Shown here: positions 1-37,831 of the stretch, piece after piece
How the letters are laid out: each line of letters opens with the position of its first letter
How positions within the stretch are numbered: position 1 is the first letter of the stretch
DNA from: a virus
Virus record (IMG/VR): IMGVR_UViG_3300044940_000191
Span: 1-37,831 of that record
Length of the DNA stretch: 37,831 nt
Direction: 5' to 3' (one strand)
Translations under genes and position numbers: made by a program
Notes under the pieces: model-generated
The model's database searches: none
What the model saw: only the letters and a program-made list of their open reading frames with translations
Told to the model about the DNA's origin: nothing

Positions 1-150
1 TATCTCTGGGCACCACGGAAGAACTCGCATCAGCAGCGTTCCTTGTTCGCTTGGTGCAAACCAAGACCAGTCATGCTCGACTTCCTCAAATTGCCATTCG
101 TAAATTCTGCCATATCCTTGGCTCACTTTCTTGCCGATCGAACGCACAGA
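1..150. repeat. Left copy of 150-bp terminal overlap (circular junction)
   Basis: These 150 bases recur at the right end (37682-37831) with two mismatches, at 127/37808 and 129/37810. Both fall in one csf3 codon, AAA here (Lys) and GAT there (Asp). Because an open reading frame continues across the join, this is best read as the assembly overlap of a circular or circularly permuted molecule, not a biological terminal repeat. The two mismatches suggest more than one strain in the sample or a local error. Confidence 0.9.
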
Positions 151-579
151 ATCGAGCAATGTTTTGAGGCTTTGCCGCTTACTACCACCAATAAACCAAC
201 ACACTCGATCTACATTGCTTACTTTGTTGGGCAATCGATAGCTCTTTGTCCAACTGTTGCCAGTCGCGACAACTAGCAGTTGATCGTCTCTCAACAATGC
301 CGCATTCTCGACCGCGATTCGCTTGGCGTAGTGCTCATGCCTCACACTTTGCGGTACAAGTATAGGCGCGGAGCAACGAGGTATGCCGTTGACTCCGCCA
401 AACTCACCACGCAAACACGGAAGATGCACCGAACCGATAGGCGGTGCAGGAGCATTGCTATTGATTCGCTGTGCAATTCCATGACGCAGTACAATCTCAC
501 GCTCTAGCAGCGAATCGAGGTACGGCGCATCACCCGCAAGCGGACTTGATAGCACAGCGGTAACTTTCCAATTACTCAT
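1..579 (-). CDS. csf3: Csf3 (type IV Cas5-like), N-terminal 193 codons; continues at 37681
   Basis: This is the Cas5-like subunit expected to cap the crRNA-5' end of a type IV ribonucleoprotein. The frame is open from ATG (577-579) to the contig edge and, if the ends are joined, continues from 37681 to a stop at 37589, giving 223 aa. The start overlaps the csf2 stop (ATGAGTAA). Visible traits are an N-terminal RAMP-like strand (WKVTAVLSSPLAGD), a central Pro/Cys-rich part, and a glycine-rich segment near residues 147-158 (IGKKVSQGYGRI) typical of RAMP proteins. The family call rests strongly on gene order between Csf2 and the CysH-like gene. Cas5-like proteins are poorly conserved, so sequence alone would be weak. 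Confidence 0.8.
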   Translation of the reverse strand, partial: MSNWKVTAVLSSPLAGDAPYLDSLLEREIVLRHGIAQRINSNAPAPPIGSVHLPCLRGEFGGVNGIPRCSAPILVPQSVRHEHYAKRIAVENAALLRDDQLLVVATGNSWTKSYRLPNKVSNVDRVCWFIGGSKRQSLKTLLDSVRSIGKKVSQGYGRIYEWQFEEVEHDWSWFAPSEQGTLLMRVLPWCPEI

Positions 580-1486
580 CGGCTATCAACTCCTTTTGTT
601 TCGCCTTGGACAGCTTCTTTTCTTTCGCGGCTGCCGCCTTGGTAAAACAATCTTCGAGCCATGCAATTGCATGATCCTTGACGCTATCGACGTGATCGAC
701 ATACGCACCGACGATTGCATCGTCGTCAACTTGGTCGATCAACGTAAGTTGCAATCGACCGTGACCAAGCCGTGCGTTGCCTCCGATCGTGCCGCCGTTG
801 GCTTGCCACAATCGCAACGACAACAGCAAGCAACCCAATTCTATTTCGTTGACATGCTTCAGGACAAAACCATGATGGAACAACGCTCCGCGCGTAACCG
901 CTTGACCGCTGTAAATCATCAGGTTGCTTGCGTCCTGGATGTCGTCGCGTTCGCGACTCAGACCGGTTTTTTTTGCATCTCCGCGAGTGTATTGATACCC
1001 GCTTAGAAAACGCTCACTACTCAATAGTCGCTTGCGTGGTATGTGACCAAGTGTCTTTTCTAAGCTGGCTCGGTTTTCCTCGCAAATCAACGTACCACGC
1101 CAAACGTCCAGCGAACCGGCTAGGATCTGATCTGGCAATGATCCACCGCATAAGCGGATTATTGGCCAATACTCGTGCATCTCTGCAATGCGACGAGTGT
1201 TTTCGTGGGCGTTGCTCATGGTGAGATTGCCGCCGTGCAAGAGAAAATTCAATTGCAACAACGACAACTTGCCACGCAAGCCGTAGCGATCGATCAACCA
1301 CAGCGCCATCGGTTCTCGGACGCAACGATGACGCAACGCGTTACCGCTGAGATATGGCACGTACATGATGCCTTTCTCGGTATGCACTGGTTCGCGTGCA
1401 ACGATTCCTTCGTTGCCTGCGGTCCCGCTCATGTGTGTGATTGGCGAAACGGCTTCGCTAATGCACTGGATTGTATACGTCTTCAT
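572..1486 (-). CDS. csf2: Csf2 (type IV Cas7-like backbone subunit)
   Basis: Predicted Cas7-family subunit that would form the helical filament along guide RNA, 304 aa. The N-terminus shows a RAMP-style strand followed by SPITHMSGTAGNEG (residues 14-27) and a motif YLSGNALRH (45-53) like those of Csf2 proteins; a glycine-rich loop GGNARLGHGR lies at 235-244. The C-terminus is Lys-rich. I chose the ATG at 1486 because it overlaps the cas11 stop (ATGA) and has GGAGA eight bases upstream. A frame opening at 1570 would only add residues inside cas11. The frame ends in an 8-nt overlap with csf3, consistent with translational coupling and fixed stoichiometry within one transcript. Confidence 0.88.
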   Translation of the reverse strand: MKTYTIQCISEAVSPITHMSGTAGNEGIVAREPVHTEKGIMYVPYLSGNALRHRCVREPMALWLIDRYGLRGKLSLLQLNFLLHGGNLTMSNAHENTRRIAEMHEYWPIIRLCGGSLPDQILAGSLDVWRGTLICEENRASLEKTLGHIPRKRLLSSERFLSGYQYTRGDAKKTGLSRERDDIQDASNLMIYSGQAVTRGALFHHGFVLKHVNEIELGCLLLSLRLWQANGGTIGGNARLGHGRLQLTLIDQVDDDAIVGAYVDHVDSVKDHAIAWLEDCFTKAAAAKEKKLSKAKQKELIADE

Positions 1487-1944
1487 TGGTGTTCTCCAAT
1501 CGCTTGTTTGTGGTCGCGCCTTGCGCAAACCAACACGGGAATCAAATGCGTGACGAGATATTGTAGCCAATCTTGACGCTCGTTCTCCGGTAATCTTTGG
1601 AGCATGTCGATGGCGTCGGTAAGACGTTCGCTTGCTACTGCTTTGCTTGCGTCGGCTTTGATCGACTCGAGAACATGCTGAACGAACAAATCAATGTCTC
1701 CACCGACGGTTTTGGCGTAGCCGCTTTGGATCGCGGCCGCGATTTTGTCCCACATCGTCATGCGGTCCAACGACTCGCCAAACACGGCTGGCAAGGCTGC
1801 GCAGAATTGTATCGCTAACGCTTTTGCGTAGCTCTCATACCATTCGTGCTTTTCTTCGTGCGGATCAATCAAACCAGCCAGGCGTTGTCGCAGCTGATCT
1901 GTGCTTAGCGTGCGGTTCTGGTTGGGTAACTGCTGGGTACTCAT
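1483..1944 (-). CDS. cas11: Cas11-like small subunit of the type IV-B complex
   Basis: A 153-aa, mostly helical, soluble protein with no membrane segment or metal motif, placed between csf1 and csf2 exactly where type IV-B loci carry the small subunit (Cas11). Its family role is to line the inner belly of the RNP filament. I recognise no diagnostic motif, so the call is from position, size and predicted helicity. The ATG at 1944 has GAGG nine bases upstream. The first 80 nt overlap the end of csf1 in another frame, unusually long for this genome, but no later Met lies near the csf1 stop. The stop overlaps the csf2 start as ATGA. Confidence 0.72.
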   Translation of the reverse strand: MSTQQLPNQNRTLSTDQLRQRLAGLIDPHEEKHEWYESYAKALAIQFCAALPAVFGESLDRMTMWDKIAAAIQSGYAKTVGGDIDLFVQHVLESIKADASKAVASERLTDAIDMLQRLPENERQDWLQYLVTHLIPVLVCARRDHKQAIGEHQ

Positions 1945-2671
1945 CGAGGCATTCCTCTTTTGCTGGACACAACCAAACCGCCAATCGCGTGAGCGGTTCG
2001 GAAAAACAATCTAGCCACGCTGCTAGGACTTCTTCACTTTCAAAATGCTCTACAATTCGCATCTGCGATTGTGGTGTCATCGCTTCTTTCATCGCAGGCT
2101 TGCCTGTGGCCGCCGCGATCATTTTACATAATTCGATTCGCTCAATTAACTGCGTGGGACGATACGTTATTACCTCGCCTTCGAGAGTGACCGTTACACG
2201 GTCGCGACTTAAATTTACAACGGCACGATAAAGCAAGTGCTTTTGGCCGCTGTCGCTGAGGCAAATACAAAACGGAGGATCTGGCGGATTGATGCACGCC
2301 TCTAGTAACTGAGCACGATGTGCTTTAGTGCATGCCTTGCGATCTGTTGCTGTGATAATCCACGAATAACCTCGTGTCTTTTGGTTGCTCTTGCGTGTGC
2401 CGTCGATCAATTCCAAATCAATTCCCTCTTGCATGGCATCCACGCATCCGGGGCAAACCCAATCACTTAACGTGACGGTGTCCAATCCGGTGAACGATGG
2501 TTTAACAATCTCTTTTGCGGGGTGAATCGGTTCGCACGATCCACCGCAATAAAAACACGTCTCTGTACCGCTAGGACCAACCCCAGCGAAAAGCTGCGTC
2601 GCCGTCCACGGCCGTTTACCGTTCGCTCCGACCATGCTTACCGGATGGGGAGTCAGGTTTTTGATTTTCAT
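1865..2671 (-). CDS. csf1: Csf1 (type IV large-subunit-like, zinc-finger)
   Basis: Signature protein of type IV CRISPR-Cas systems, thought to act as the large (Cas8-like) subunit; 268 aa. A four-Cys zinc site is clear: C39-x2-C42 (CFYCGG) and C73-x2-C76 (WVCPGC), separated by a segment with VKPSFTG, matching the Csf1 layout as I know it. Further Cys residues cluster at 114-137 and 222-241. The start at 2671 is set by AAGGAGA seven bases upstream; the frame extends to 2920 but only through a repeated leader. The N-terminus MKIKNLTPHPV resembles the start of small phage proteins of unknown role, so a fusion or convergent start is possible. First gene of the Cas operon. Confidence 0.82.
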   Translation of the reverse strand: MKIKNLTPHPVSMVGANGKRPWTATQLFAGVGPSGTETCFYCGGSCEPIHPAKEIVKPSFTGLDTVTLSDWVCPGCVDAMQEGIDLELIDGTRKSNQKTRGYSWIITATDRKACTKAHRAQLLEACINPPDPPFCICLSDSGQKHLLYRAVVNLSRDRVTVTLEGEVITYRPTQLIERIELCKMIAAATGKPAMKEAMTPQSQMRIVEHFESEEVLAAWLDCFSEPLTRLAVWLCPAKEECLDEYPAVTQPEPHAKHRSAATTPGWFD

Positions 2672-2674
2672 TTT

Positions 2675-2777
2675 CTCTCCTTTGCAAGGCGGCTCCCCGC
2701 TCGCATAACGACTTGGGACGGCCAGCGTTGGCACCCCCAGCGCTGGGGCATTAGCACCGACGAATCGGTGCCCCTCT
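2675..2777 (-). repeat. Leader repeat copy 1, upstream of csf1
   Basis: About 100 bp shared with 3034-3138. Read in the gene direction it holds a GGGGC...GCCCC hairpin (with ACCGA-TTCG-TCGGT inside), an AGCGCTGGGGG block, CTGGCCGTCCCAAG, then a weaker hairpin directly before the Shine-Dalgarno of csf1. It fills the gap between csf1 and the preceding gene. It could be a planctomycete-type intergenic repeat or a transcript-level control element. Confidence 0.75.
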
Positions 2778-2778
2778 G

Positions 2779-3027
2779 CTAGTCTGCTGCCCAATCCATT
2801 TCTTCTTGGGACAGCGGAGGCGCTGTCCCGCATCCAAAGCACAACCAGCCGTTCTCGAAATATCGACCACCGGCTAATATGGCCGACCGCCGGGACGCGC
2901 AAGTTATGTGCTTGCAGCAATCACAATTGACGGGAATCGGTTTTTCTCCCGTGTAGTGAACCGACTCGGGGTCGGTGCAATATCGCGGGCCTAGACGCCC
3001 GCACCAGGGGCATTGTTGTTGAGGCAC
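2779..3027 (-). CDS. Cys-rich small protein, probable zinc binder
   Basis: An 82-aa protein with three pairs of cysteines: CPWCG near the N-terminus, CDCC in the middle and CFGCG near the C-terminus, which suggests one or two zinc knuckles. I do not recognise the family. The start is a GTG at 3027, chosen because AAGGAGA lies nine bases upstream; an upstream in-frame extension to 3093 is made of repeat sequence. It directly precedes csf1 in the same direction and shares csf1's leader repeat, so it may be co-regulated with the Cas genes. Confidence 0.65.
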   Translation of the reverse strand: MPQQQCPWCGRLGPRYCTDPESVHYTGEKPIPVNCDCCKHITCASRRSAILAGGRYFENGWLCFGCGTAPPLSQEEMDWAAD

Positions 3028-3033
3028 GGTTTC

Positions 3034-3138
3034 TGTCTCCTTTGCGAGGCGGTCCTCGCACGAATGCCGCCTTGGGACGGCCAGCGCTGGCACCCCCAGC
3101 GCTGGGGCATTAGCACCGGCAAAGCCGACGCCCCTCTG
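3034..3138 (-). repeat. Leader repeat copy 2, upstream of the Cys-rich gene
   Basis: Second copy of the element at 2675-2777, with the same block order. The hairpin next to the Shine-Dalgarno is perfect here (GCGAGG / CCTCGC, 3044-3059), while copy 1 needs G-T pairs. Confidence 0.75.
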
Positions 3139-3153
3139 CGCGCTGACATCATG

Positions 3154-3516
3154 TCAGCCAACAGGCTCCTCGAAGTAAGCGTTGGTGATGGCCCAACGCT
3201 TTTCTTTGTTGAGAAGATCGCGGACCTTCTCAACGTCGACTCCAATTTTCTCCAACTCTGTCAGGACCGCACGGTTTCCCGTGACGGTTTCCTGACGGAC
3301 AGAGACCATGCCACGGCAGATTTCTACCGTGGCAATCAAATTGTGTGTGCCGTATGGATTACGGCACAAGCCAACTCGGACGAAATATGTTACTTCGTCC
3401 CTGTAATCGTCCTCGTCTTCTGGGACGATGATCTCGTCCCAGAAGAACCAGGTTGGCCAATAGCAAAAGTATTCACCATCGAAGTGGTGATACCCGTGAT
3501 TGATTCTTGTTTCCAT
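3154..3516 (-). CDS. Hypothetical protein, acidic, aromatic-rich N-terminus
   Basis: A 120-aa protein of unknown family. The first 40 residues are rich in Tyr, Trp and Phe (GEYFCYWPTWFFWDEI), followed by an acidic stretch and a C-terminal helix with LTELEKIGVDVEKVRDLL. Start at 3516 has AAGGAGA seven bases upstream and sits just after a GC-rich hairpin. It is the first gene after an intrinsic terminator. Confidence 0.6.
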   Translation of the reverse strand: METRINHGYHHFDGEYFCYWPTWFFWDEIIVPEDEDDYRDEVTYFVRVGLCRNPYGTHNLIATVEICRGMVSVRQETVTGNRAVLTELEKIGVDVEKVRDLLNKEKRWAITNAYFEEPVG

Positions 3517-3527
3517 CGTGTCTCCTT

Positions 3528-3546
3528 GCCCCCGCGAGGCGGGGGC
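3528..3546 (-). promoter_or_regulatory. Hairpin next to Shine-Dalgarno (gene at 3516)
   Basis: GCCCCCGCCTCGCGGGGGC in the transcript direction, flanked by ACTAACC on one side and AAGGAGA on the other. The same arrangement (TAAC-GCCCC-loop-GGGGC-SD) precedes several genes in this run, suggesting control of translation or transcript stability. Confidence 0.6.
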
Positions 3547-3562
3547 GGTTAGTGTTAGCATG

Positions 3563-3593
3563 AAAAAGCCCAGGCCCCCGATGATGCCTGGGC
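3563..3593 (-). terminator. Intrinsic terminator inside the small-gene/Cas run
   Basis: Minus-strand stem GCCCAGGC / GCCTGGGC with a 10-nt loop, followed by TTTTT. It lies between the 65-aa gene (ending at 3606) and the 120-aa gene (starting at 3516), with too little room for a promoter downstream. It would reduce transcription into the Cas genes unless read through. Confidence 0.78.
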
Positions 3594-3605
3594 AAAATCT
3601 ATCGC

Positions 3606-3803
3606 TCACGGTGCATAGCAGAAACAATGCCCGCAATCCACCAACGTATTCCCGTTGCGATCCTCAAAAACAGGATCGTAGGAATTGCGGTGGTATTTTT
3701 CGACGATTTTCATCGCCTCTTCGTAGCTTTGCGCGAAACACTCCTTTTGCGAAGTGCCGGCCCAAACCGTGATCTTGATTTTCCAATTTTTAGAATCAGT
3801 CAT
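3606..3803 (-). CDS. Small hypothetical protein
   Basis: A 65-aa protein with the pattern KIKITVWAGTSQKE...SYEEAMKIVEKY and a Cys/His-containing tail (CGHCFCY). The strand-then-helix start resembles small sheet-helix phage proteins of unknown role. GAGGG lies upstream of the ATG at 3803, after a GCCCC/GGGGC hairpin. Confidence 0.6.
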   Translation of the reverse strand: MTDSKNWKIKITVWAGTSQKECFAQSYEEAMKIVEKYHRNSYDPVFEDRNGNTLVDCGHCFCYAP

Positions 3804-3819
3804 TATTGTTTTCCCTCGT

Positions 3820-3833
3820 GCCCCGCTAGGGGC
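3820..3833 (-). promoter_or_regulatory. Hairpin next to Shine-Dalgarno (gene at 3803)
   Basis: GCCCC-TAGC-GGGGC in the transcript direction, preceded by ACTAACC; same arrangement as the hairpin at 3528-3546. Confidence 0.55.
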
Positions 3834-3849
3834 GGTTAGTTGTTAGAAG

Positions 3850-4167
3850 TTACCAATCTACGACTTCGCCGTCGTACTCGACATCAGCATCGCCGAACCA
3901 CTCGCGCGCGGCGTCGTATTCCACGTCGCATATCCTGATCCACTCGTGGGGAATTTCTTCCCCATTTACCCGAATCACTCCTTGGATTCGCTCAATATCG
4001 GGTTCATATATTTCCGTTGGAAGCTCTACGCCGTCTTTGAGCATTGCGTAGATTTCATAATTTGCATCGGTGCAGCAATCTTCGAGGCTTCCCCACTTTG
4101 CCTTTTGTTTTTCCTTGACAAGGTTAATGGTTGCCTCGATAACGCCTTTAATTTCGAACCAGGACAT
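3850..4167 (-). CDS. Hypothetical acidic protein
   Basis: A 105-aa acidic protein of unknown family, helical at first (IKGVIEATINLVKEKQKAKW) and ending in a run rich in Asp, Glu and Trp. Start at 4167 is set by AAAGGAGA upstream; an in-frame Met further up lies in the leader hairpin. Confidence 0.6.
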   Translation of the reverse strand: MSWFEIKGVIEATINLVKEKQKAKWGSLEDCCTDANYEIYAMLKDGVELPTEIYEPDIERIQGVIRVNGEEIPHEWIRICDVEYDAAREWFGDADVEYDGEVVDW

Positions 4168-4179
4168 TTGGTCTCCTTT

Positions 4180-4193
4180 GCCCCATGCGGGGC
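4180..4193 (-). promoter_or_regulatory. Hairpin next to Shine-Dalgarno (gene at 4167)
   Basis: GCCCC-GCAT-GGGGC in the transcript direction, preceded by ACTAACA and followed by AAAGGAGA. Confidence 0.55.
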
Positions 4194-4290
4194 TGTTAGT
4201 GTTCATAGTTTTGCGTTTGGCGCGAAGGAAACTAGGCGGGAATCGCGCCCGCCTTGAAACAATTTGCTTTCAACCTACTCATCACTTGAA

Positions 4291-4533
4291 CTATTTGACT
4301 AGCCCAAGCGAAGCCGCGATTTTATGCAGCTTCTTACCGCTTATCGCGGTATTAACATCGTACATGGGCTTCCCCATGTACGTGCCGGGGTGTTGGTCGC
4401 AACACGACGGGTCGGCACACCCTCCGCACAAATGCGGCGAAGGGGGACCGATCGTCGCGTTTGTGTCGATTCCAGTTTCGCGCAGATGCGCGACTAGTTT
4501 AGTCGCGTTGGGTTCGATGAATCGCTTGCTCAT
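4291..4533 (-). CDS. Small Cys-rich hypothetical protein
   Basis: An 80-aa protein with a central cluster CGGCADPSCCDQH that could bind a metal, and a basic C-terminal helix. Family not recognised. First gene of the run after the promoter at 4603-4631; AGAGGAG precedes the ATG at 4533. Confidence 0.6.
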   Translation of the reverse strand: MSKRFIEPNATKLVAHLRETGIDTNATIGPPSPHLCGGCADPSCCDQHPGTYMGKPMYDVNTAISGKKLHKIAASLGLVK

Positions 4534-4545
4534 TTCTTCTCCTCT

Positions 4546-4565
4546 TGCCCTGCCAGGGGCGGTTA
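4546..4565 (-). promoter_or_regulatory. Hairpin next to Shine-Dalgarno (gene at 4533)
   Basis: TAACC then GCCCCTGGCAGGGC (one bulged base) then AAGAGGAG. Imperfect member of the hairpin-SD set. Confidence 0.45.
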
Positions 4566-4576
4566 CTGTTTCCGTC

Positions 4577-4589
4577 GAGCACTGTGCTC
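4577..4589. promoter_or_regulatory. Operator-like palindrome GAGCAC-N-GTGCTC
   Basis: A perfect 13-nt palindrome located about +7 to +19 relative to the start site predicted for the promoter at 4603-4631. This is a position where a bound repressor would block initiation or escape. The protein that binds it is unknown; candidates in this genome are the HTH proteins at 13828 and 35447. Confidence 0.5.
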
Positions 4590-4602
4590 AACTGATGCCC
4601 TA

Positions 4603-4631
4603 ACTATATCGGCCCGATGGCCGACAGTCAA
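4603..4631 (-). promoter_or_regulatory. Sigma70-type promoter for small-gene and Cas run
   Basis: Minus strand: TTGACT at 4626-4631, 17-nt spacer, TATAGT at 4603-4608; expected start near 4596. This is the best-matching promoter I found in the window. The spacer holds the inverted repeat TCGGCC-ATCG-GGCCGA, a possible operator. It lies between the terminase and the first small gene, and no other good promoter is visible before csf1. Confidence 0.75.
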
Positions 4632-4698
4632 CAGGGAAGAAGAAAGAATTTCGAAATTTTTTTCCAAGCCCTTTTTCGCATGGATCTAGCGACTCGCT

Positions 4699-6825
4699 CT
4701 ACTCTGAGTGCTTGCGCATCAAGTCGGCGTAGCGGTCGCGGACGCTCCTGCCCGATTTCTGGGGCTTGCGCCGGCGAATGCTCGTGGCGTCCTCGAGGTC
4801 GTTGCGGGCTCCCTCCATGCTGGCCGCAATCGCAGCCAGACAGACGGCATCGAGGAGGTGATTGTCCCGATTGGGCTTTAGGGTCCACTCTTGGAGCGTA
4901 CGCCCATGGCCTGTGGTTTCGACGGCGTACTCGGCGCTGAGATGGTCCGCCATCATGCGGTGACGACTGGGGTGAGCGCGAAACAAATGCCATGCACCGA
5001 TGCTACCGCTGTCCATCGCGAACGATTCGGCGATAAAGGTCTTAATGCGGTTCGTGTCGACATGCACCAGGCGAGCGCCTCGGACGCGTCTCACCGGCGG
5101 CATCCGCCAACAGAACCCGCGTCGCTCGCCTCGCTGCTTGGGGACCTGAGACCACGGTTTTTTCTTGGCCGTGATGCCTTCGCCTTTGCTCGGCAGCAGC
5201 TTGATCGCTCCCTCGTACGCATCGCAAAACTGCATGATAGTCTCGCTGCGATAGCCACTGTCGATAAGACCTCGCTCGATTTTAAGCTGCGTCCCATCGT
5301 CGCGGACGAAGCGACGTGCGGCGAGCTCGGCCGTTAACCGGTTAAGTGCCTCGTAGGTAGCCTCGGCAGGTCGAGAGATTTTTAACTTGCGTGCGTAACT
5401 CATCTCGATGTCGGCCAGCGTCACATAGTCGACGCCTTGATCGGGCCACACTCCGTAGTCAGTGACCAAGCCCGAGAAGTCTGTGCCAGTTGCCAGGACT
5501 GCCCACCAGAGGGATGAGCCCTGTACGTCGATACCAAGTGTGACCCATTCGGCCCAGTCTGGTAGTTCGGTGCGACGATGTGTTTGCAATACGCGCAAGC
5601 AGTATTCGTCCGAGCTTAGGATTTTGATGCCGGTCGAGATCTCGATTTCCGGCTTGGGCTCGTTGTTGTATTCAGCGTCAAAGGTCTCGGGATTGTCCTC
5701 GCGCAGTCCGTAGGCGTGCTGGATGCACGATAGCTCGTGATCGTAATGGCGATGCTCCCATCCAACCTTGGCCCCTTTGTCCATCGCCTTGCGATTCTTC
5801 TTGTAAAATGCGGTGGCTTTGGGGTGCGTGTCATCCCCTGCGAGGATCTCCTCGCGACGGATCTCGAGATACTTATTCCAGAGTTCTTCGTTCTCTGGCC
5901 ATGCATAGACGAGCTTACACCGACGTCCATGCCATTTGGGATTGAGCTGTCGATTGAGCAATCGATCGGCGGCATCGTTTTGGACGATGACCGTTACGGC
6001 AGCGAATCCCGAGATCCGCTTTCCTGGTCCGGCTAGTCCGAGGATGGCAGCGGATAGGATCTTTTCTCGTTTGGCGCATTCGATCGCGGACTTGGCCGAG
6101 GTGTCGGTCTGCGGATCGTTGACGAGCACAAAATCCGGTCGCACGGTCTCGCCGTTAGGCATGAGGACCTGCATGCCACGGATGCGGCCCAGAATACCGG
6201 TGCATCGAATGGTTGCGCCGGATGCGATGCTACCGACTATGGTCGGATAGGTGATGCTCTTTTTCGTCCATCCGATTTGGGTGCGTTGGCCTAAACAAGT
6301 CTGTGCGTTGGCGCGTTGGGTGATCCCCTCTAGCTTGCGAATCGGCACCGCGATCTCGGGGAAATCCTCGAGCAGTAGGTCGTTGGTTTCCCACTCGGCT
6401 TTGATCGTGTCGAGCGATTCCTCGGCTGCGGATTTGTCCGCCTCAACGAGCAGCACGACCTTGCGATGTCCGTACGAGGTAGCCCAAATCGCGGCACGGA
6501 TTAGGATCGTGGTTTTGCCCGAGCCGCGAGGCATCGCGATTGCCGACAGGCCACCCTCGAGGACTTTCTTTTCGATGTCGGCGATAATGTCGAGGTGATC
6601 TTGCGAAAACGGCTTCAGAAAGGACTCGGGATAGTACGTGAGCAGATACCGTTTTAGATCTCGCTCGCAGGCCTGCCGACGTTTGAAATTCTTGGGTCTT
6701 GGGATGCGTCCCAGGTCTTTGGCGTCAGTGGCTTTTTCGCGTTGGCGATTGTTCGCGCGGATCTTGTGCTGTGCGTAGCTATCGTCGTGAGCATTGGCGG
6801 CTGCGTGGGGCGGCTTGCGTGGCAT
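4699..6825 (-). CDS. Terminase large subunit (GpA-like)
   Basis: DNA-packaging ATPase and nuclease, 708 aa. ATPase part: Walker A MPRGSGKTT (98-106) and a Walker B-like strand FVLVNDPQ (232-239). Nuclease part, starting near residue 420, has the strand TLGIDVQ with the metal-binding Asp and a second acidic strand GLIDSGYRSE, as in GpA-type terminases. The ATG at 6825 has AGGA upstream; an extension to a TTG at 6888 is possible but overlaps the preceding gene more. No small terminase subunit is recognisable; the preceding zinc-ribbon gene overlaps this start by 47 nt and is a candidate only by position. Confidence 0.92.
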   Translation of the reverse strand: MPRKPPHAAANAHDDSYAQHKIRANNRQREKATDAKDLGRIPRPKNFKRRQACERDLKRYLLTYYPESFLKPFSQDHLDIIADIEKKVLEGGLSAIAMPRGSGKTTILIRAAIWATSYGHRKVVLLVEADKSAAEESLDTIKAEWETNDLLLEDFPEIAVPIRKLEGITQRANAQTCLGQRTQIGWTKKSITYPTIVGSIASGATIRCTGILGRIRGMQVLMPNGETVRPDFVLVNDPQTDTSAKSAIECAKREKILSAAILGLAGPGKRISGFAAVTVIVQNDAADRLLNRQLNPKWHGRRCKLVYAWPENEELWNKYLEIRREEILAGDDTHPKATAFYKKNRKAMDKGAKVGWEHRHYDHELSCIQHAYGLREDNPETFDAEYNNEPKPEIEISTGIKILSSDEYCLRVLQTHRRTELPDWAEWVTLGIDVQGSSLWWAVLATGTDFSGLVTDYGVWPDQGVDYVTLADIEMSYARKLKISRPAEATYEALNRLTAELAARRFVRDDGTQLKIERGLIDSGYRSETIMQFCDAYEGAIKLLPSKGEGITAKKKPWSQVPKQRGERRGFCWRMPPVRRVRGARLVHVDTNRIKTFIAESFAMDSGSIGAWHLFRAHPSRHRMMADHLSAEYAVETTGHGRTLQEWTLKPNRDNHLLDAVCLAAIAASMEGARNDLEDATSIRRRKPQKSGRSVRDRYADLMRKHSE

Positions 6826-8777: not shown

Positions 8778-9002
8778 TTACCTTTCGTTTGTACTTGTGT
8801 TCAAATTAAACAATGGATTGCATGGCATGTCTCGAATCTTTTGACTTAAAACCGCAGCGTCGTACCAGCTAAAATCTAGTTCTGGATTGGCTGCCATGCG
8901 GCCCAGAGTCCTAAGTGTTTCCGTGCGATTTGCCTCATCGAACAGGAAAATGTAATGCTGGCCGCCTCGGGATAACGCAGCGACACGAACTTGTGGGCTC
9001 AT
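8778..9002 (-). CDS. Small hypothetical protein after replication initiator
   Basis: A 74-aa protein whose ATG overlaps the stop of the replication gene (ATGA), so it is probably translationally coupled. Sequence has a strand (HYIFLF) followed by helices. Family not recognised. Confidence 0.6.
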   Translation of the reverse strand: MSPQVRVAALSRGGQHYIFLFDEANRTETLRTLGRMAANPELDFSWYDAAVLSQKIRDMPCNPLFNLNTSTNER

Positions 9003-10078
9003 GCTGTGACCGGTTCCTTTGGTAATGGTGGGCATGGGGGTAACTGTTTGCGGAGCTTGTGCCAGTCGTAGCCTCGCTCCTCGGCGAAGTGTCGCCCAAT
9101 GCCTCGGTAGTAGGCGGCCTCGTCGCGAGCATGCGCCTTGGCCGATCGCACGAATTGCCTCACCTGGTGCAATCCCTCGAGCAGCACGCCCGCACACGCA
9201 ACCTGCCAAATGTGCTCTCGCTCCTCGCGTTGCCGCGCTTTCGACCGGATCGATTCCGCGATCATGCGAGCTCCCTGCGCAATGTCGCGAAGTTGCTCGG
9301 CGGTGATGTTCCCGAAAGGTGTTTCGCCAACATCGTCGACGACGACGACTGACCGCTCGATGGGCTGCTCAGTCGCTTCGGAAATCGCGTGCTCTGTCGG
9401 AGTCGTCGGAGTCGTCGGAGATAACGGATTATCGGATTTATCGGATATAAGGAGAGGCTCGCCGATGTTGCATGCAGCGCTGCTATAGGCGCTGCTATCA
9501 GCGCTGCTATAGGCGCTGCTATAGGCGCTGCTATCAGCGCTGCTATAGGCGCTGCTATAGGCGCTGCTATAGGCGCTGCTATCCTCGTTGCATACAACAT
9601 CGGGTGCCAAAGCACTGCTCTGAGGAGCAATTTTCGCGTCGGATTCGACCACGAAAAACGGCTTGGCCTTTGGGCTTCTGGCGAGGATGTTGACAACCCG
9701 CATCTGGATCTCGATGAGCATGCCTGCATTCTGCCCTCGAGCGTTTCTGACGGTGGTGCGAGTGATGATCCCAGCCTCCTCGAGGCGAGCCAGTGCACGG
9801 CCCACGGCATTGGGGTGGCATTTGAGTCGCTCGTGCTCGGCTAGCTCTTTCTTGGTACCGATCCACTGGATGCCCGAGCAGCCCATCTCGCTGACTGAGG
9901 GGCTGCCAGCAAATACGGCCAGCATGCCAGCGAGCTCGTGCAGGAGCTCGCCCGGCTGAGCACCGATCTGCTCGGCCGCAAGCTGCATCTTGCGAGCGCG
10001 ATCGGCCCGAGCTTTGCGTATCGCTTCGGATTCGGCCTCGAGCGACTCTAAGCCTAGTGTGAGTTGTTGGAATGTCAT
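8999..10078 (-). CDS. Replication initiator-like protein with winged helix and iteron-encoding linker
   Basis: A 359-aa protein resembling phage lambda-O-style initiators in layout. A winged-helix domain covers about 70-125 (TKKELAEHERLKC, ALARLEEAGIITRTTV), followed by a low-complexity linker SSAYSSAYSSAD repeated nine times and a C-terminal domain rich in charged helices that could contact a helicase loader. The linker repeat is the translation of a 12-bp tandem array, so the origin may lie inside the gene, as in lambda. No helicase or polymerase gene is visible, so host replication enzymes would be recruited. AAAGGA lies six bases upstream of the ATG. Confidence 0.7.
   Translation of the reverse strand: MTFQQLTLGLESLEAESEAIRKARADRARKMQLAAEQIGAQPGELLHELAGMLAVFAGSPSVSEMGCSGIQWIGTKKELAEHERLKCHPNAVGRALARLEEAGIITRTTVRNARGQNAGMLIEIQMRVVNILARSPKAKPFFVVESDAKIAPQSSALAPDVVCNEDSSAYSSAYSSAYSSADSSAYSSAYSSADSSAYSSAACNIGEPLLISDKSDNPLSPTTPTTPTEHAISEATEQPIERSVVVVDDVGETPFGNITAEQLRDIAQGARMIAESIRSKARQREEREHIWQVACAGVLLEGLHQVRQFVRSAKAHARDEAAYYRGIGRHFAEERGYDWHKLRKQLPPCPPLPKEPVTA
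9396..9453. repeat. Short tandem repeats and AT-rich block beside iterons
   Basis: GTCGGAGTC repeated about three times, then a run with TTATCGGAT-type repeats (near 9421-9450) that is the most AT-rich part of the gene. Beside the iterons, this is where an origin's unwinding region would be expected. Confidence 0.5.
9477..9584. repeat. Nine tandem 12-bp repeats (candidate origin iterons)
   Basis: Units of GCGCTGCTATAG or GCGCTGCTATCA in direct tandem with no spacer; the last unit ends differently. They are in frame and encode SSAY/SSAD in the overlapping minus-strand gene. The variant unit recurs at positions 2 and 5. Arrays like this inside an initiator gene are typical of lambdoid origins. 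Confidence 0.85.
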
Positions 10079-13563: not shown

Positions 13564-13615
13564 GGCCCACAGGAACAACCACCACAATTCCAGCGGCGAT
13601 AGGAACCGCTGGAAG

Positions 13616-13699
13616 CACCGGCCCCAGGAGTCGAACCCAGACCGTCGCAGCCAACCGAGGGAGTGCGCTGCGATGCTCTACCAATTGAGCTAGGCCAGT
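13616..13699 (-). tRNA. tRNA-like gene with enlarged anticodon arm
   Basis: An 84-nt cloverleaf-like sequence. Acceptor ACTGGCC / GGCCGGT, D-arm GCTC-AATTGGTA-GAGC and T-arm with the loop TTCGACT are all normal. The anticodon arm is not: it forms a 7-bp stem (TCGCAGC / GCTGCGA) with a 15-nt loop (GCACTCCCTCGGTTG), about 12 nt too long, so the anticodon cannot be assigned. It is not a class II tRNA, since the extra bases are in the anticodon arm. No CCA is encoded. The 345 bp between the CsrA-like and HTH genes contain only this gene and two terminators. Confidence 0.6.
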
Positions 13700-14555: not shown

Positions 14556-14941
14556 ACCAAACCCCTCAGGCCAAAGGTTAAACAAGCCGATGCACCGAGC
14601 GCCGCCCGAAATGCGTCAGATCCAAATTTTCACGGGTCCTTCCTGCGACTTCCACGCTGCCGACCCCGTAGGGAGTAGCAGCAAAATGAGACACACTTTC
14701 TTTTTTTTCCTTGCGTCCTTGAAAAACTGGACTAGGGTGCAAGGAGTCGTCTTTCGAGTGCGGCCGAGAGGACTTGAACCTCCAAGGGATTGCTCCCACT
14801 AGCACCTCAAGCTAGTGGGAGCAAAAAGCCAAACGGTTTCGGCGAAAAATTTAAGGCGACAATAGGACCGCCCAAATTACGATGGATTGGAGGATTTGAC
14901 GTCAGGGACGGCTTTTCGCTCTCGACAGAAAGTCACCATCC
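14556..14941. other. 386-bp region between DUF4236 gene and integrase
   Basis: Contains the tRNA-derived attP and presumably the integrase arm sites and promoter. A TTGACG hexamer lies at about 14896 but has no convincing -10 partner. No gene is supported. Confidence 0.6.
14759..14822 (-). other. attP core: 3' part of a tRNA-Leu(GAG) gene
   Basis: Read on the minus strand this has tRNA-Leu sequence from the anticodon stem to the 3' end: loop TTGAGGT with anticodon GAG, a class II variable arm (TGGGAGCAATCCC), T-loop TTCAAGT and acceptor strand CGGCCGC plus A. The 5' acceptor strand and D-arm are absent, so it is no working tRNA. Upstream of the loop the sequence departs from tRNA and instead completes a perfect 12-bp inverted repeat (GCTCCCACTAGC / GCTAGTGGGAGC) around the 7-nt loop, the layout of core-type integrase sites with a 7-bp crossover. 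The integrase starts 120 bp away. Confidence 0.85.
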
Positions 14942-15853
14942 ATGAACCTTGTAGATTTCGCTGAACACTATTTTTCCTCGCACGAATTTGGAATCAAAGA
15001 AAATTCCCAGCGTTGTTACTACCTCCCTGCAGCGCGTCAGTTTATTGAAGCGACGAATTGCCAAAGCGTCGCGGCAATCAACAAAGTCTATGCCAATCAA
15101 TTTGTAGATTGGCTACGCTCGCGCCCCATTTCGGTGACTACTCAGCACACCAGGCGGCGAGCATTTGCGACCCTTTGGCGTGCAGCCTACGATGCAGGCG
15201 AATGCCCAGTATTCGAGCCATTTCGGAAGATCCGCGTCACCAAAAAATCGCCGCGAGCCTGGTCTCGCGAGGATGTGCAAAAGTTGTTCGCAACCACGGT
15301 GATCGATCAATCCGAATGGGCTTGGGGAATGAAAGCTGGCACCTATTGGGGCTCTCTGTTTTCGGCTGCGTGGGATAGCGGCTTGCGGCTCGGTGATCTG
15401 CTGTCGATCGAGCTCGATTGGCTAATCCGCGATGGTAAATCCGGCACCGCTGTCGTAGTGATTTCCGCAAGCAAAACCGGCAAAGAGCATGTCGTGACAT
15501 TCAATCGGCCCACCATGCAGCTCATCGATCGCAGCATGAAAGAGCATCCCAATCGCAGGCTCATTTGGCCACTGCGTAATGCTCGTCGCGAGTTCTATCG
15601 CGACGTGAAAAATAGGCTCGCGAAAGCAGGCTTGGAGGGAACGTTTCGTTACCTGCGTCGATCGGCGGTTACCTTTGCCGAGTCCATTTCGCCAGGCATG
15701 GGCACCAGGCTCGCAGGCCACCGCGATTCGCGCACGACTCGCGATAGCTACATTGATCCGCTGCTATTGCCAAACAATCGAGTGATCTTGCCGGCGCTGA
15801 TACAAGATGCGAACACTAGCGGCAACCAAGCCGATGCTGATGCTCGCGGATAA
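14942..15853 (+). CDS. int: Integrase, tyrosine recombinase
   Basis: A 303-aa phage integrase and the only clear plus-strand gene. N-terminal SAM-like core-binding domain at 1-90; catalytic domain from about 105. Catalytic residues: R149 in SGLRLGD, K178 in SKTG, R240 in YLRRSA, H260 in AGHRDS and Y270 in RDSYID. The usual His of the H-x2-R box is replaced by Tyr237. The attP lies immediately upstream, so it probably integrates the phage at a host tRNA-Leu gene. The 3' end overlaps the convergent glycosyltransferase gene by 38 bp. Confidence 0.92.
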   Translation: MNLVDFAEHYFSSHEFGIKENSQRCYYLPAARQFIEATNCQSVAAINKVYANQFVDWLRSRPISVTTQHTRRRAFATLWRAAYDAGECPVFEPFRKIRVTKKSPRAWSREDVQKLFATTVIDQSEWAWGMKAGTYWGSLFSAAWDSGLRLGDLLSIELDWLIRDGKSGTAVVVISASKTGKEHVVTFNRPTMQLIDRSMKEHPNRRLIWPLRNARREFYRDVKNRLAKAGLEGTFRYLRRSAVTFAESISPGMGTRLAGHRDSRTTRDSYIDPLLLPNNRVILPALIQDANTSGNQADADARG

Positions 15854-23841: not shown

Positions 23842-23856
23842 AATTGGTTCCGTAGG

Positions 23857-23920
23857 AACCGGACGCTAGCGCGTTCCGGCTGAACATCGTAATAACCGGA
23901 CGCTAGCGCGTTCCGGCTGA
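23857..23920. repeat. Two copies of a 27-bp palindromic intergenic element
   Basis: AACCGGACGCTAGCGCGTTCCGG plus CTGA occurs twice, 10 bp apart, in the gap between 23841 and 23957. Each has inner palindromes (CGCTAGCG; CCGGA/TCCGG). From memory such elements are common between genes of Rhodopirellula-type planctomycetes; this is my main hint for the host. Confidence 0.85.
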
Positions 23921-23956
23921 TCAGCCGCAGGGCCCTAGCCTACGGTTGTTTGTTGG

Positions 23957-35379: not shown

Positions 35380-35432
35380 GCACCGACGTTATCACAGCAG
35401 CCCCGAAATCGCAGATTTTTAGATACCAATAA
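35380..35432 (-). promoter_or_regulatory. Promoter-like element, copy 2 (before portal operon)
   Basis: Matches copy 1 (30466-30517) in both conserved blocks; the variable spacer is 8 nt here against 7 nt. ATG again follows TGTGATAACGTCGGTGC immediately. Likely promoter of the portal-fibre operon. Confidence 0.7.
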
Positions 35433-35446
35433 AGGTTTCCAACGAG

Positions 35447-35653
35447 TCATGTTGCCTTTTTGCGAGGCTTGGTTTTAGGCACGATCCGCAGCTCCAGCGC
35501 AGCGAGCAAGCGATCGACCGAATCGCTGGTGAGCCCGCGTTTTCCGTCCACAAATCGTTTAACGACGCCGGGATCAAGCCCCGCGAGCTTGGCCAGTGCG
35601 TAAGCGGTTAGATCGCGCCGGGTCATTTCCACAATGATCGTGTCTCTTATCAT
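35447..35653 (-). CDS. Helix-turn-helix regulator
   Basis: A 68-aa XRE-like protein. Helix-turn-helix at about 16-40 (AYALAKLAGLDPGVVKRFVDG), then GLTSDSVDRLLAALELRI and a basic tail. The start MIRDTIIVEM is typical for a family of small regulators in phages and plasmids. It begins one base after the stop of the 93-aa gene upstream. A broken relative lies at 36815-36862. Confidence 0.75.
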   Translation of the reverse strand: MIRDTIIVEMTRRDLTAYALAKLAGLDPGVVKRFVDGKRGLTSDSVDRLLAALELRIVPKTKPRKKAT

Positions 35654-35654
35654 T

Positions 35655-35936
35655 TCAATCGTTGAGTCGAGTTTCGTGTACAACAATTCGGATAAACTCG
35701 AGCCACGCAGACTCGTCGTCACTGGTGAGCAGCCACGTTACTGACGACACAATCCAATCGTAATCGTCGTTATCTTGCCCGCGGACGTTCATTGGTCCGC
35801 TCGGTGGTGACAAGCTGTCGCCAACACGCGGCAGCGGGTCATCCCAATGGGGAAACTCTAGCCACAGCGATAGATCGTCGGTAAAAATCGGAGGCTCTAG
35901 GTTTGCGCCAACCCACTCAAAAATAACACGTGCCAT
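35655..35936 (-). CDS. Hypothetical cassette protein, Trp-rich
   Basis: A 93-aa acidic protein with many Trp residues (FEWVGANLEPP, SLWLEFPHWDD, AWLEFIRIVV). Family not recognised. ATG 35936 lies just after the 83-bp repeat; the longer frame back to 36065 only reads through the repeat. May be paired with the HTH gene that follows it. Confidence 0.55.
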   Translation of the reverse strand: MARVIFEWVGANLEPPIFTDDLSLWLEFPHWDDPLPRVGDSLSPPSGPMNVRGQDNDDYDWIVSSVTWLLTSDDESAWLEFIRIVVHETRLND

Positions 35937-35938
35937 GT

Positions 35939-36021
35939 ACCACACCAATAAACCCGAGCCCGCCCTCGAGTCTTTTCGAAATGGAAAATCACTCGGAGCG
36001 GGCCGAGTCATTGGTAGCGTT
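35939..36021. repeat. 83-bp palindromic repeat, copy A
   Basis: Matches copy B (36653-36735) except for one base. Nearly palindromic: arms CCAATRA and TCATTGG at the outside, CCGAGCCCG... and ...CGGGCCGAG inside, with an AT-richer centre. The stop codon of the upstream small gene (TAA in CATAACGC) touches one end and an ATG follows the other. Confidence 0.88.
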
Positions 36022-36316
36022 ATGACGACCTGGTGAGTCGTGTCATAATTACGTAAACGCAACACTCACGAAACCAAAACTGTGAACCATACTCGCCGTT
36101 GTCATCGAGCGTAGGGATTTGCATGACTAGCTTTGCAAGTTCTTCAGACCTTTCTAGTAGGTTGCCATAAACAAACAGATCGCAATGCGTGTTGTCGATA
36201 GACGTTTCACACCGCACGTCGTCTCCAATCATCAAAGACAATCCAGAGGCGATGATCGTCGCATAATTGCCGTCTGAACAGCAGTCAAGCAATTCACCAA
36301 TAATCTGAGGTGTCAT
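36020..36316 (-). CDS. Hypothetical cassette protein
   Basis: A 98-aa protein of unknown family (QIIGELLDCCSDGNYATIIA, HCDLFVYGNLLERSEELAKL). Its TAA stop lies at the edge of repeat copy A. No strong Shine-Dalgarno. Lies between two repeat copies, as in a mobile gene cassette. Confidence 0.55.
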   Translation of the reverse strand: MTPQIIGELLDCCSDGNYATIIASGLSLMIGDDVRCETSIDNTHCDLFVYGNLLERSEELAKLVMQIPTLDDNGEYGSQFWFRECCVYVIMTRLTRSS

Positions 36317-36367
36317 AAAAATCCAATGCTACCGGAGTCGCAAATACTGGTTAATTTGAAATTACAA

Positions 36368-36389
36368 TCCCTGGCTGCGACACCAGGGA
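36368..36389 (-). terminator. Weak terminator-like hairpin
   Basis: TCCCTGG / CCAGGGA with an 8-nt loop, followed by TTGTAATTT on the minus strand, after the 83-aa cassette gene. T-run interrupted, so strength is doubtful. Confidence 0.45.
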
Positions 36390-36398
36390 ATCAAGTCG

Positions 36399-36650
36399 TT
36401 AGGTGGATTCCACAACAATCGAAATCTTTACCATCTTGGCACCACGCTTCTTTATCCAACGCTTCTTTTTTTCGAAATCCCACTGCGGGTCGTAACCTAG
36501 TCGTGCCATGCTAAATTCTGGCATCCTCTCACACGCATCATCGTATTCTCGGATTGCTCTCAACCACGACTGCTTTGCTTTCCACGCAATTGACGCAGTC
36601 ACAACCCCCGAATCCGGCCACAGCAAACCGAAGTATCCAGAATAACGCAT
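36399..36650 (-). CDS. Hypothetical cassette protein, basic C-terminus
   Basis: An 83-aa protein (WLRAIREYDDACERMPEFSM, then EKKKRWIKKRGAKMVK). Family not recognised. ATG 36650 follows repeat copy B; extending the frame to 36755 only adds translated repeat. Confidence 0.5.
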   Translation of the reverse strand: MRYSGYFGLLWPDSGVVTASIAWKAKQSWLRAIREYDDACERMPEFSMARLGYDPQWDFEKKKRWIKKRGAKMVKISIVVEST

Positions 36651-36652
36651 AG

Positions 36653-36735
36653 ACCACACCAATGAACCCGAGCCCGCCCTCGAGTCTTTTCGAAATGGAA
36701 AATCACTCGGAGCGGGCCGAGTCATTGGTAGCGTT
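36653..36735. repeat. 83-bp palindromic repeat, copy B
   Basis: Second copy, one mismatch to copy A (G for A at base 12). On the minus strand AACGC opens the repeat and GCGTT follows shortly after its end, which resembles the outer pair of an integron attC site, though the spacing is asymmetric. Confidence 0.88.
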
Positions 36736-36814
36736 CTAGCTGCCGGTTGAACCACCCCCGCCGGATCATTGGGCTGGCACCCTCCCCGGCAGGGGCGAGA
36801 ATTGTTACTGCTGA

Positions 36815-36862
36815 TTAGACCATGTGTCGTATCATTTCGGCGATGATGATGTCTCTTATCAC
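36815..36862 (-). pseudogene. Remnant of HTH gene start
   Basis: Fifteen codons from GTG 36862 (VIRDIIIAEMIRHMV, then TAA) align with the first fifteen of the HTH gene at 35653 (MIRDTIIVEMTRRDL). The rest of the gene is missing. This points to duplication or replacement of material between here and 35447. Confidence 0.55.
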
Positions 36863-36893
36863 AATGTTTTTTCTTTCGACTGGGATAACACTT

Positions 36894-37595
36894 TTAAGGT
36901 CTTCTGGCACGCATTCTCGCCAGCACGTCGCCGTAATACTCGTGTTCCCACTCCGAGCGACCATTCCCACCGCCTGTATGTCCGCCTATGGCGTCCACTC
37001 GCAGCTTCTCGCGTTTCCATCTCCCTTGTCCGAGCATCGCGTAGTTCGGGTGTGTCGGTAAATCATGTATTGCCAACAAAGCAAAGACGTCTTGCTCACT
37101 AAGCCATCCTATCGGTCGGCAGACACTCTCGGTTGCTAGTCCATGTATTCGCATGGACATTTTTCGAATACCTGATTCGCTGGCCCTAACGCCAACAATT
37201 CGCCGATGGGTACCAGTCGCTTCAACGGCTGGGCGGAAGCAGCGTTCATTGCTTACGGTTGGATCATTCCAGAGCTTCGCTGGAAATGTCGGCTCGAAAT
37301 AATCGACATCAAATCGCCTTAAAAAGGCGTCTCGCACGTCTTCGCAACCTGGGCACTCCGCCCCTTCGGGACGCACCCAAACCAAGGGCACCCAAGGCGT
37401 CCAAGTCGCAACCAACCAAGCGGTAACAACCGAGTCTTTGCCCCACGAAACCGAGCAATAGCATCGCTCTTGCGCAAACCCTCGGACTTCGTTCACTGAT
37501 CGTTCGATGTTGACTCGATGCAGTTTGTCACTTTCCAAATACGATTGCCACAATTGCAAATCCTCTTTGGTGTGGCGATGACTTGGAATTAACAT
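36894..37595 (-). CDS. cysH-like: CysH-like (PAPS reductase-fold) partner of the type IV-B locus
   Basis: A 233-aa PP-loop protein. ATP-pyrophosphatase loop SVSWGKDS at 48-55 (SxGKDS type), a CPGC pair at 81-84, GVRASES at 135-141 and the usual C-terminal pattern RPIGWLSEQDV...LPTHPNY (160-185). It lacks the ECGLH-type end of sulfate-assimilation reductases, so ordinary sulfate reduction is unlikely. CysH-like genes are the constant neighbours of type IV-B Cas genes; their reaction there is unknown. ATG 37595 overlaps the csf3 stop by 7 nt (ATGTTAA), so it is the last gene of the same operon. Confidence 0.85.
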   Translation of the reverse strand: MLIPSHRHTKEDLQLWQSYLESDKLHRVNIERSVNEVRGFAQERCYCSVSWGKDSVVTAWLVATWTPWVPLVWVRPEGAECPGCEDVRDAFLRRFDVDYFEPTFPAKLWNDPTVSNERCFRPAVEATGTHRRIVGVRASESGIRKMSMRIHGLATESVCRPIGWLSEQDVFALLAIHDLPTHPNYAMLGQGRWKREKLRVDAIGGHTGGGNGRSEWEHEYYGDVLARMRARRP

Positions 37596-37831
37596 GGCAC
37601 CGCAATCTCCATGATCCTATCAGGATGCCAGTACGGAGGTGCTACGCCACCGCACCAACGCTTCCATCCGATAAGATTGTGTATCTCTGGGCACCACGGA
37701 AGAACTCGCATCAGCAGCGTTCCTTGTTCGCTTGGTGCAAACCAAGACCAGTCATGCTCGACTTCCTCAAATTGCCATTCGTAAATTCTGCCATATCCTT
37801 GGCTCACATCCTTGCCGATCGAACGCACAGA
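37589..37831 (-). CDS. csf3: Csf3 C-terminal part (joins 1-579 across the circle)
   Basis: The last 80 codons of csf3, with no start in this part. The first 50 repeat the terminal overlap with one residue change (IGKDVS here, IGKKVS at the other end); the last 30 (from HNLIGWKRWCGG to EIAVPC) are present only here. Joined at 37681/1 they make a 223-aa protein with a stop at 37589-37591. Confidence 0.8.
   Translation of the reverse strand, partial: SVRSIGKDVSQGYGRIYEWQFEEVEHDWSWFAPSEQGTLLMRVLPWCPEIHNLIGWKRWCGGVAPPYWHPDRIMEIAVPC
37682..37831. repeat. Right copy of 150-bp terminal overlap
   Basis: Same 150 bases as 1-150 with two mismatches. Removing one copy gives a circle of 37,681 bp. Confidence 0.9.

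What the first reader, a model, noticed from the sequence alone, without database searches (positions are those of the whole stretch)
1..2671. Type IV-B-like CRISPR-Cas operon carried by a phage and hidden by the contig ends
Seen: a zinc-finger protein, a helical small protein, two RAMP-like proteins and a PP-loop protein in the order csf1-cas11-csf2-csf3-cysH, each gene overlapping the next, with csf3 split between positions 1-579 and 37589-37831. Known: this set, order and the lack of an array, Cas6, Cas1/2 and DinG define type IV-B, so far described mainly on plasmids and in prophage-like elements, especially of actinobacteria. Inference: a planctomycete phage uses this RNP, perhaps in conflict with other elements or the host. 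It would be lost if the contig were annotated as linear.
Basis: partly seen in the sequence, partly recalled or inferred. Interest (0 to 1): 0.95.

Follow-up and report, generated by a model that had tools for sequence, protein, structure and literature searches.

The report
Type IV-B CRISPR operon in Pirellula phage
A temperate virus of Pirellula-like bacteria carries a complete five-gene 'CRISPR without a memory' operon as removable cargo, and comparison with about 15 other viruses shows that its RNA-binding machine is inherited as a unit while its enzyme partner is swapped between operons, a clue to how this poorly understood system works.

Summary
The contig is circular (126 nt exact end overlap, 150 nt with 2 mismatches; 37,681 bp unique). 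Joining the ends gives an intact minus-strand operon csf1-cas11-csf2-csf3-cysH, every gene overlapping the next. PADLOC profiles for type IV Cas8, Cas11, Cas7 and Cas5 match at 5e-62, 4e-25, 3e-80 and 3e-26. No array was found, and no Cas1, Cas2 or Cas6 among the ORFs scanned: canonical type IV-B.

The host call holds. The phage is temperate, and its attP contains 59 nt identical to tRNA-Leu(GAG) of a Pirellula MAG. The operon is cargo in a ~7 kb island between terL and portal; two close relatives have only ~105 nt there. A 76%-identical csf operon sits in a structurally unrelated HK97-type phage.

Virus-borne IV-B was already published, so this is a new member of a known kind. What the papers I read did not contain: at least 16 viral contigs carry complete IV-B sets; csf1, csf2 and csf3 travel together while cysH is exchanged between operons (same-clade cysH rejected, p-AU 2.7e-5); some loci embed a ParB plus PAPS-reductase/DUF3440 pair.

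Favoured mechanism, inferred only: a nuclease-less RNA-bound filament positioning an exchangeable PP-loop enzyme. Function remains untested.

The parts
1865..2671 (-). csf1 (type IV Cas8-like large subunit; paired Cys motifs CFYCGG..WVCPGC)
   Evidence: PADLOC PDLC01574 E=4.8e-62; NCBIfam TIGR03114 E=3.2e-14, below its curated cut-off
1483..1944 (-). cas11 (small subunit)
   Evidence: PADLOC PDLC01573 E=3.7e-25
572..1486 (-). csf2 (type IV Cas7-like backbone)
   Evidence: PADLOC PDLC01572 E=2.8e-80; phrog_22746 E=1.9e-62; weak match to the solved type IV-B Csf2 7jhy E=0.014
1..579 (-). csf3 (Cas5-like), 5' part; continues at 37589-37681 across the contig ends
   Evidence: joined 223 aa protein: PADLOC PDLC01498 E=2.9e-26, phrog_34599 E=3.3e-27
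37589..37681 (-). csf3, 3' part
37682..37831 (.). end overlap, repeats window 1-150 (circular contig)
36894..37595 (-). cysH-like PP-loop protein (SWGKDS motif; no C-terminal catalytic cysteine)
   Evidence: Pfam PAPS_reduct E=1.1e-4, phrog_2302 E=3.2e-22; model pLDDT 64, best PDB match CysH 6vpu E=9e-5
1..4708 (.). cargo island, part 1: from just after the terL stop (4699), through small genes and csf1/cas11/csf2, to the 5' part of csf3
   Evidence: L030 and L031 have 103-104 nt between terL- and portal-side homology where the window has 6,958 bp
35432..37681 (.). cargo island, part 2: 3' end of csf3, cysH, small genes and an HTH gene, up to the portal side
4603..4631 (-). sigma-70-like promoter candidate (TTGACT-17-TATAGT) at the head of the island
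   Evidence: consensus match only, shuffles give 1.1 such sites by chance
14757..14815 (-). attP core: 3' half of tRNA-Leu(GAG), beside integrase 14942-15853
   Evidence: 59/59 nt identical to tRNA-Leu of Pirellula sp. Prado161

Best explanation
This is a complete type IV-B CRISPR-Cas operon carried as a cargo module by a temperate tailed phage of Pirellula or a near relative. Shown here: operon integrity, circularity, host signal, cargo site with empty relatives, spread between unrelated phages, purifying constraint on the csf genes, and exchange of cysH between operons. Inferred mechanism: Csf2, Cas11, Csf3 and Csf1 assemble a nuclease-less filament on short RNAs taken from the cell, because the locus encodes no array and no conserved flanking RNA. 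The filament binds complementary or otherwise chosen nucleic acid and positions the CysH-like PP-loop enzyme, which activates a substrate by adenylation and so modifies or marks nucleic acid. The conserved N- and C-terminal segments of CysH would be the docking parts and the variable core the substrate-specific part. The phage gains in conflict with host defences or competing elements. Identification confidence is about 0.97; this mechanism about 0.35.
For: Profiles. Circularity. No CRISPR-like array in the window (only a 12-bp coding microsatellite appears) and none in 15 related viral loci apart from one microsatellite in L064. No conserved flanking DNA within the window/L003/L004 trio, nucleotide or translated. 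Purifying constraint: csf2 dN 0.13-0.22 against dS 1.8 or more. Cargo status. Transfer to an unrelated phage: L003 operon 76% nt identical, in a phage with its own HK97-type portal (5e-73). Exchange of cysH: the trio is one clade for Csf1 (97/97), Csf2 (100/98) and Csf3 (100/99) but rejected for CysH (p-AU 2.7e-5); the CysH of L003 groups with L057/L059 (100/99), a grouping that Csf2 rejects (p-AU 1e-4). CysH keeps the PP-loop and termini (61-78% and 50-61% identity within the trio) around a core of 19-33%. Published: the IV-B RNP assembles on heterogeneous RNA of about 55-60 nt (PMC7937560); CasCysH lacks the catalytic Cys and is proposed to act by ATP alpha-hydrolysis (PMC8175902).
Against: No experiment that I found shows the biological activity of any IV-B system. 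The CysH-RNP interaction and the docking/core split are inferred from conservation alone. The CysH model is of modest confidence (pLDDT 64; C-terminal fifth below 50), and fold matches to other PP-loop enzymes (TrmU, NAD synthetase, LarE) are only slightly weaker than to CysH. In actinobacterial and haloarchaeal pairs the PP-loop partner is about as conserved as Csf2, so exchange is not universal. Part of the low CysH identity could be fast evolution rather than replacement.
Confidence: 0.45

Rival explanations
1. Guide-RNA sponge: the Csf filament soaks up host crRNAs or other small guide RNAs and so protects the phage from RNA-guided defence; CysH is accessory.
For: The RNP binds heterogeneous short RNA and the sponge idea is published (PMC7937560, PMC8175902). 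No array or conserved flanking RNA. 8 of 27 genomes of the host genus hold Cas1, so guide RNAs exist in some hosts.
Against: Does not explain why cysH accompanies every complete operon seen here or why it is exchanged. Neither MAG that carries the matching tRNA-Leu site has a detected Cas1, though the MAGs may be incomplete.
Confidence: 0.2
2. Scavenging interference: the complex loads host crRNAs and silences competing phages or plasmids as type IV-A does.
For: Type IV-A systems repress targets without a nuclease (PMC11656645); the type IV-B complex presents RNA as type III complexes do (PMC7937560).
Against: No Cas6 or DinG found among the ORFs scanned; co-expressed I-E crRNAs were not preferred by the published complex (PMC7937560); no role for CysH.
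Confidence: 0.15
3. Non-CRISPR role: the RNP and CysH act in the phage's own cycle, for example marking or protecting its RNA or DNA.
For: IV-B loci in L044, L048, L050, L006, L007 and L041 sit with a ParB plus PAPS_reduct/DUF3440 pair; in L050 the cluster directly precedes the small terminase gene.
Against: Dispensable: close relatives L030 and L031 lack the whole island at this site. The window itself lacks the ParB/DUF3440 pair.
Confidence: 0.15
4. Neutral hitch-hiker or decaying relic.
For: Patchy presence; absent from close relatives.
Against: All five frames are open and overlapping; csf dN is far below dS; the gene set is kept in many divergent viruses.
Confidence: 0.03

Closest known systems
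Type IV-B CRISPR-Cas, Mycobacterium sp. JS623 plasmid (structure 7jhy, PMC7937560)
   Same: Csf1, Cas11, Csf2, Csf3 plus cysH; no array, no Cas6, Cas1 or Cas2
   Different: Csf2 only distantly similar (phmmer E=0.014); here on a temperate phage of planctomycetes
Bathyarchaeia 'Fuxivirus' IV-B (PMC10848311)
   Same: Virus-borne IV-B with cysH next to csf3
   Different: Fuxivirus infects archaea and has a two-repeat mini-array and Cas4; none was found in the window
Skermania phage SPI1 ORF40-44 (KR011061, L005)
   Same: Isolated phage with the same five-gene order
   Different: Csf2 25% identical in tblastn; annotated only as hypothetical proteins
IV-B operons of viral contigs L003, L004, L048
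   Same: Csf2 83%, 76% and 64% identical to the window
   Different: Other phage contexts and a different cysH; L048 has a DUF3440/ParB pair between csf3 and cysH

Membership tests
Type IV-B CRISPR-Cas | Csf2 (type IV Cas7) | tested here: met
   PADLOC 2.8e-80 over 2-281 of 304 aa; NCBIfam TIGR03115 matches at 34 bits, below its 130-bit equivalog cut-off
Type IV-B CRISPR-Cas | Csf1 and Csf3 core genes | tested here: met
   4.8e-62 and 2.9e-26; NCBIfam equivalog models match below cut-off
Type IV-B CRISPR-Cas | cas11-like gene | tested here: met
   3.7e-25
Type IV-B CRISPR-Cas | cysH-like gene in the operon, without catalytic Cys | tested here: met
   PAPS_reduct just above its cut-off (22.7 against 22.5 bits); no Cys in the last 74 residues
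Type IV-B CRISPR-Cas | no CRISPR array | tested here: met
   no array-like repeats
Type IV-B CRISPR-Cas | no Cas6, Cas1, Cas2 or DinG | tested here: met
   no such match among the larger ORFs scanned against PADLOC; a DinG match at E=0.0055 lies in terL. Small ORFs were not all scanned
Type IV-B CRISPR-Cas | RAMP fold of Csf3 (predicted structure) | tested here: inconclusive
   AlphaFold2 on two sequences (L003, L004) gave pLDDT 30
Type IV-B CRISPR-Cas | Csf2-Cas11 filament on RNA | not testable with these tools
   needs purification and cryo-EM
Type IV-A | DinG helicase, Cas6 and array | tested here: not met
   absent; a IV-A-like locus (L040) with Cas6- and DinG-like genes served as contrast
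Type IV-C | Cas10-like HD large subunit instead of Csf1 | tested here: not met
   Csf1 present

The most novel reading that the evidence does not exclude
CysH is the exchangeable effector of viral type IV-B: a PP-loop enzyme that the RNA-bound Csf filament directs to a nucleic-acid substrate and that phages trade to change target or escape countermeasures. In some lineages it is joined by a second PP-loop (PAPS_reduct/DUF3440) plus ParB module.
Probability: 0.3. Interest if true: 0.88.

Novelty: new member of a known kind. Interest (0 to 1): 0.56.

Why it matters
Type IV-B is among the least understood CRISPR subtypes: no known guide, no nuclease and an unexplained enzyme partner. This set of phage operons gives an empty cargo site, a likely host genus, and natural chimeras in which nearly the same RNP is paired with different CysH proteins. 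That makes the role of CysH and its docking parts directly testable by swaps.

Tried and rejected
A dedicated guide RNA beside the operon: the 71-nt repeat upstream of csf1 (2694-2764, 3053-3123) and the hairpins before small genes looked promising, but no flanking sequence is shared with L003 or L004, and the hairpin-plus-Shine-Dalgarno element occurs four times in the island and nowhere in the eight other loci scanned. Rfam gave no match. Host-chromosome origin: 0 of 392 planctomycete genomes have a convincing type IV Csf2; the six weak partial matches (E 9e-6 to 1e-3) were not followed up and are probably type III Cas7. The one Csf1 match (E=8.5e-12) is a IV-A-like locus in what looks like a contaminating contig. 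The Csf3 model failed and was not searched. A genome scan with Csf2 and viral scans with Csf3 or SPI1 Csf2 found nothing new. CysH as a free phage gene: of 21 CysH relatives, 16 lie with csf1, csf2 and csf3; four others are near a contig edge and one (L062) lies in a 79 kb contig without Csf2, in a frame that may be broken. The Csf2 tree with plasmid relatives left deeper branching unresolved.

Full report
Observation. The window is an IMG/VR virus record. Its first and last 150 bases match, identical for 126 nt with mismatches at 127 and 129, so the contig is circular, about 37,681 bp. Across the join csf3 reads as one 223-aa protein; L003 and L004 hold it in one piece at 81% and 70% identity. 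The operon order on the minus strand is csf1-cas11-csf2-csf3-cysH with overlaps at every junction. PADLOC profiles identify type IV Cas8, Cas11, Cas7 and Cas5 (4.8e-62, 3.7e-25, 2.8e-80, 2.9e-26). NCBIfam Csf1/2/3 models match weakly and below cut-off. PHROGs already holds Csf2- and Csf3-like families of 'unknown function'. The cysH product matches PAPS_reduct, and its model, of modest confidence, is nearest to CysH 6vpu. No array, Rfam match or other Cas protein was found.

Phage and host. TerL, portal, protease/major head protein, tape measure and two integrases are present. Next to integrase 14942-15853 lies the 3' half of a tRNA-Leu(GAG), a probable attP. A pattern from it matched only two contigs in about 85,000 species genomes, both Pirellula MAGs; the Prado161 tRNA is identical over 59 nt. 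A phage palindrome (23851-23923) was found with two mismatches in 1 of 149 planctomycete genomes, that same MAG. TerL homologues occur in 53 of 392 planctomycete genomes, while none of 392 has a convincing type IV Csf2.

Cargo island. L030 and L031 are close relatives (TerL 89%, portal 84-87%; major head protein 83% in L031), and in both only 103-104 nt separate terL- and portal-side homology; in the window 6,958 bp lie there, holding the csf operon, small genes and an HTH gene. A sigma-70-like site heads the island (consensus only). In L003 a csf operon 76% identical in DNA sits in an HK97-type phage with different structural genes. The module therefore moves between unrelated phages.

Relatives. 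A scan with the CysH alignment found 21 viral loci; with HMMs built here, 16 of these hits carry csf1, csf2, csf3 and cysH, including L003 and L004 again (as L052 and L058) and one near-duplicate contig. Counting the window, 16 distinct viral contigs hold the set. Of 15 records checked, 6 have a portal and 2 more have a clear terminase. Skermania phage SPI1, an isolate, has the same order. These loci were found by their CysH signature, so the count is not a census.

Exchange of cysH. Between the window and L003/L004, Csf2 is 83/76% identical, Csf3 81/70%, Csf1 69/62%, but CysH 44/40%. Csf2 identity to the window ranges from 34 to 84% across loci, whereas CysH stays at 33-46% whatever the Csf2 distance. 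The trio is a supported clade for Csf1, Csf2 and Csf3; for CysH the clade is rejected (p-AU 2.7e-5), and L003 CysH joins L057/L059 with 100/99, which Csf2 rejects (p-AU 1e-4). The trio was named from Csf2 before the CysH tree was built, but after the low CysH identity had been seen; the L003/L057/L059 test was chosen after seeing the CysH tree. In Rhodococcus and haloarchaeal pairs the PP-loop partner is about as conserved as Csf2, so the exchange is a feature of this viral set and not of all IV-B.

Second PP-loop module. In L048 and L050 a PAPS_reduct/DUF3440 protein and a ParB-like protein lie between csf3 and cysH; L044, L006, L007 and L041 have the pair nearby. The pair resembles IbrA/IbrB (name from memory, not tested). 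The window lacks it.

Mechanism. Shown: gene set, constraint, mobility, exchange. Known: the IV-B RNP forms on heterogeneous RNA of about 55-60 nt without a nuclease (PMC7937560); CasCysH lacks the catalytic Cys and may act by ATP alpha-hydrolysis (PMC8175902). Inferred: the conserved RNP acts as platform and the exchanged CysH as catalytic output on nucleic acid. Sponge and crRNA-scavenging models remain open.

Comparison. Membership in type IV-B is met on every feature that could be tested conclusively by sequence. Virus-borne IV-B is published (PMC10848311; PMC11656645), so the category is not new. I found no report of planctomycete phage IV-B or of cysH exchange in the papers searched; two key papers (Pinilla-Redondo 2020, Moya-Beltran 2021) were not held and Al-Shayeb 2022 was not read, so this absence is weak.

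Noticed in passing
window 3522-4575 (-): Four copies of a hairpin plus Shine-Dalgarno element (ACTAACCGCCCC..GGGGC.AGGAG..ATG), each before a small gene of the island; not found elsewhere in the window or in eight other loci.
   Followed up: partly
window 2694-2764 and 3053-3123: 71-nt repeat (87%) with the palindrome CCCCAGCGCTGGGG just upstream of csf1 and of a small Cys-rich gene.
   Followed up: partly
L030 6586-6680, L031 8156-8255: Strong long hairpin (about -42 and -48 kcal/mol) between terL and portal at the empty site; absent from the window, where the island lies.
   Followed up: no
L048:4315-6011, L050:2727-4538, L044, L006, L007, L041: ParB-like plus PAPS_reduct/DUF3440 pair inside or beside type IV-B operons of viruses and plasmids.
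   Followed up: partly
window 35934-36036 and 36648-36750: 103-nt direct repeat (90%) covering the start of two small genes with nearly identical N-termini.
   Followed up: no
window 9477-9582: 12-bp tandem repeat, about 9 copies, encoding SSAY/SSAD repeats in the 359-aa ORF 8999-10078.
   Followed up: no
window 23851-23923: Tandem palindrome AACCGGACGCTAGCGCGTTCCGG; among 149 planctomycete genomes found (2 mismatches) only in the Pirellula MAG that has the matching tRNA-Leu.
   Followed up: partly
window 13615-13699 (-): tRNA-Val(CAC) carried by the phage.
   Followed up: no
   Followed up: partly
L005 (KR011061 ORF40-44): Isolated Skermania phage SPI1 carries an unannotated type IV-B operon.
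   Followed up: yes
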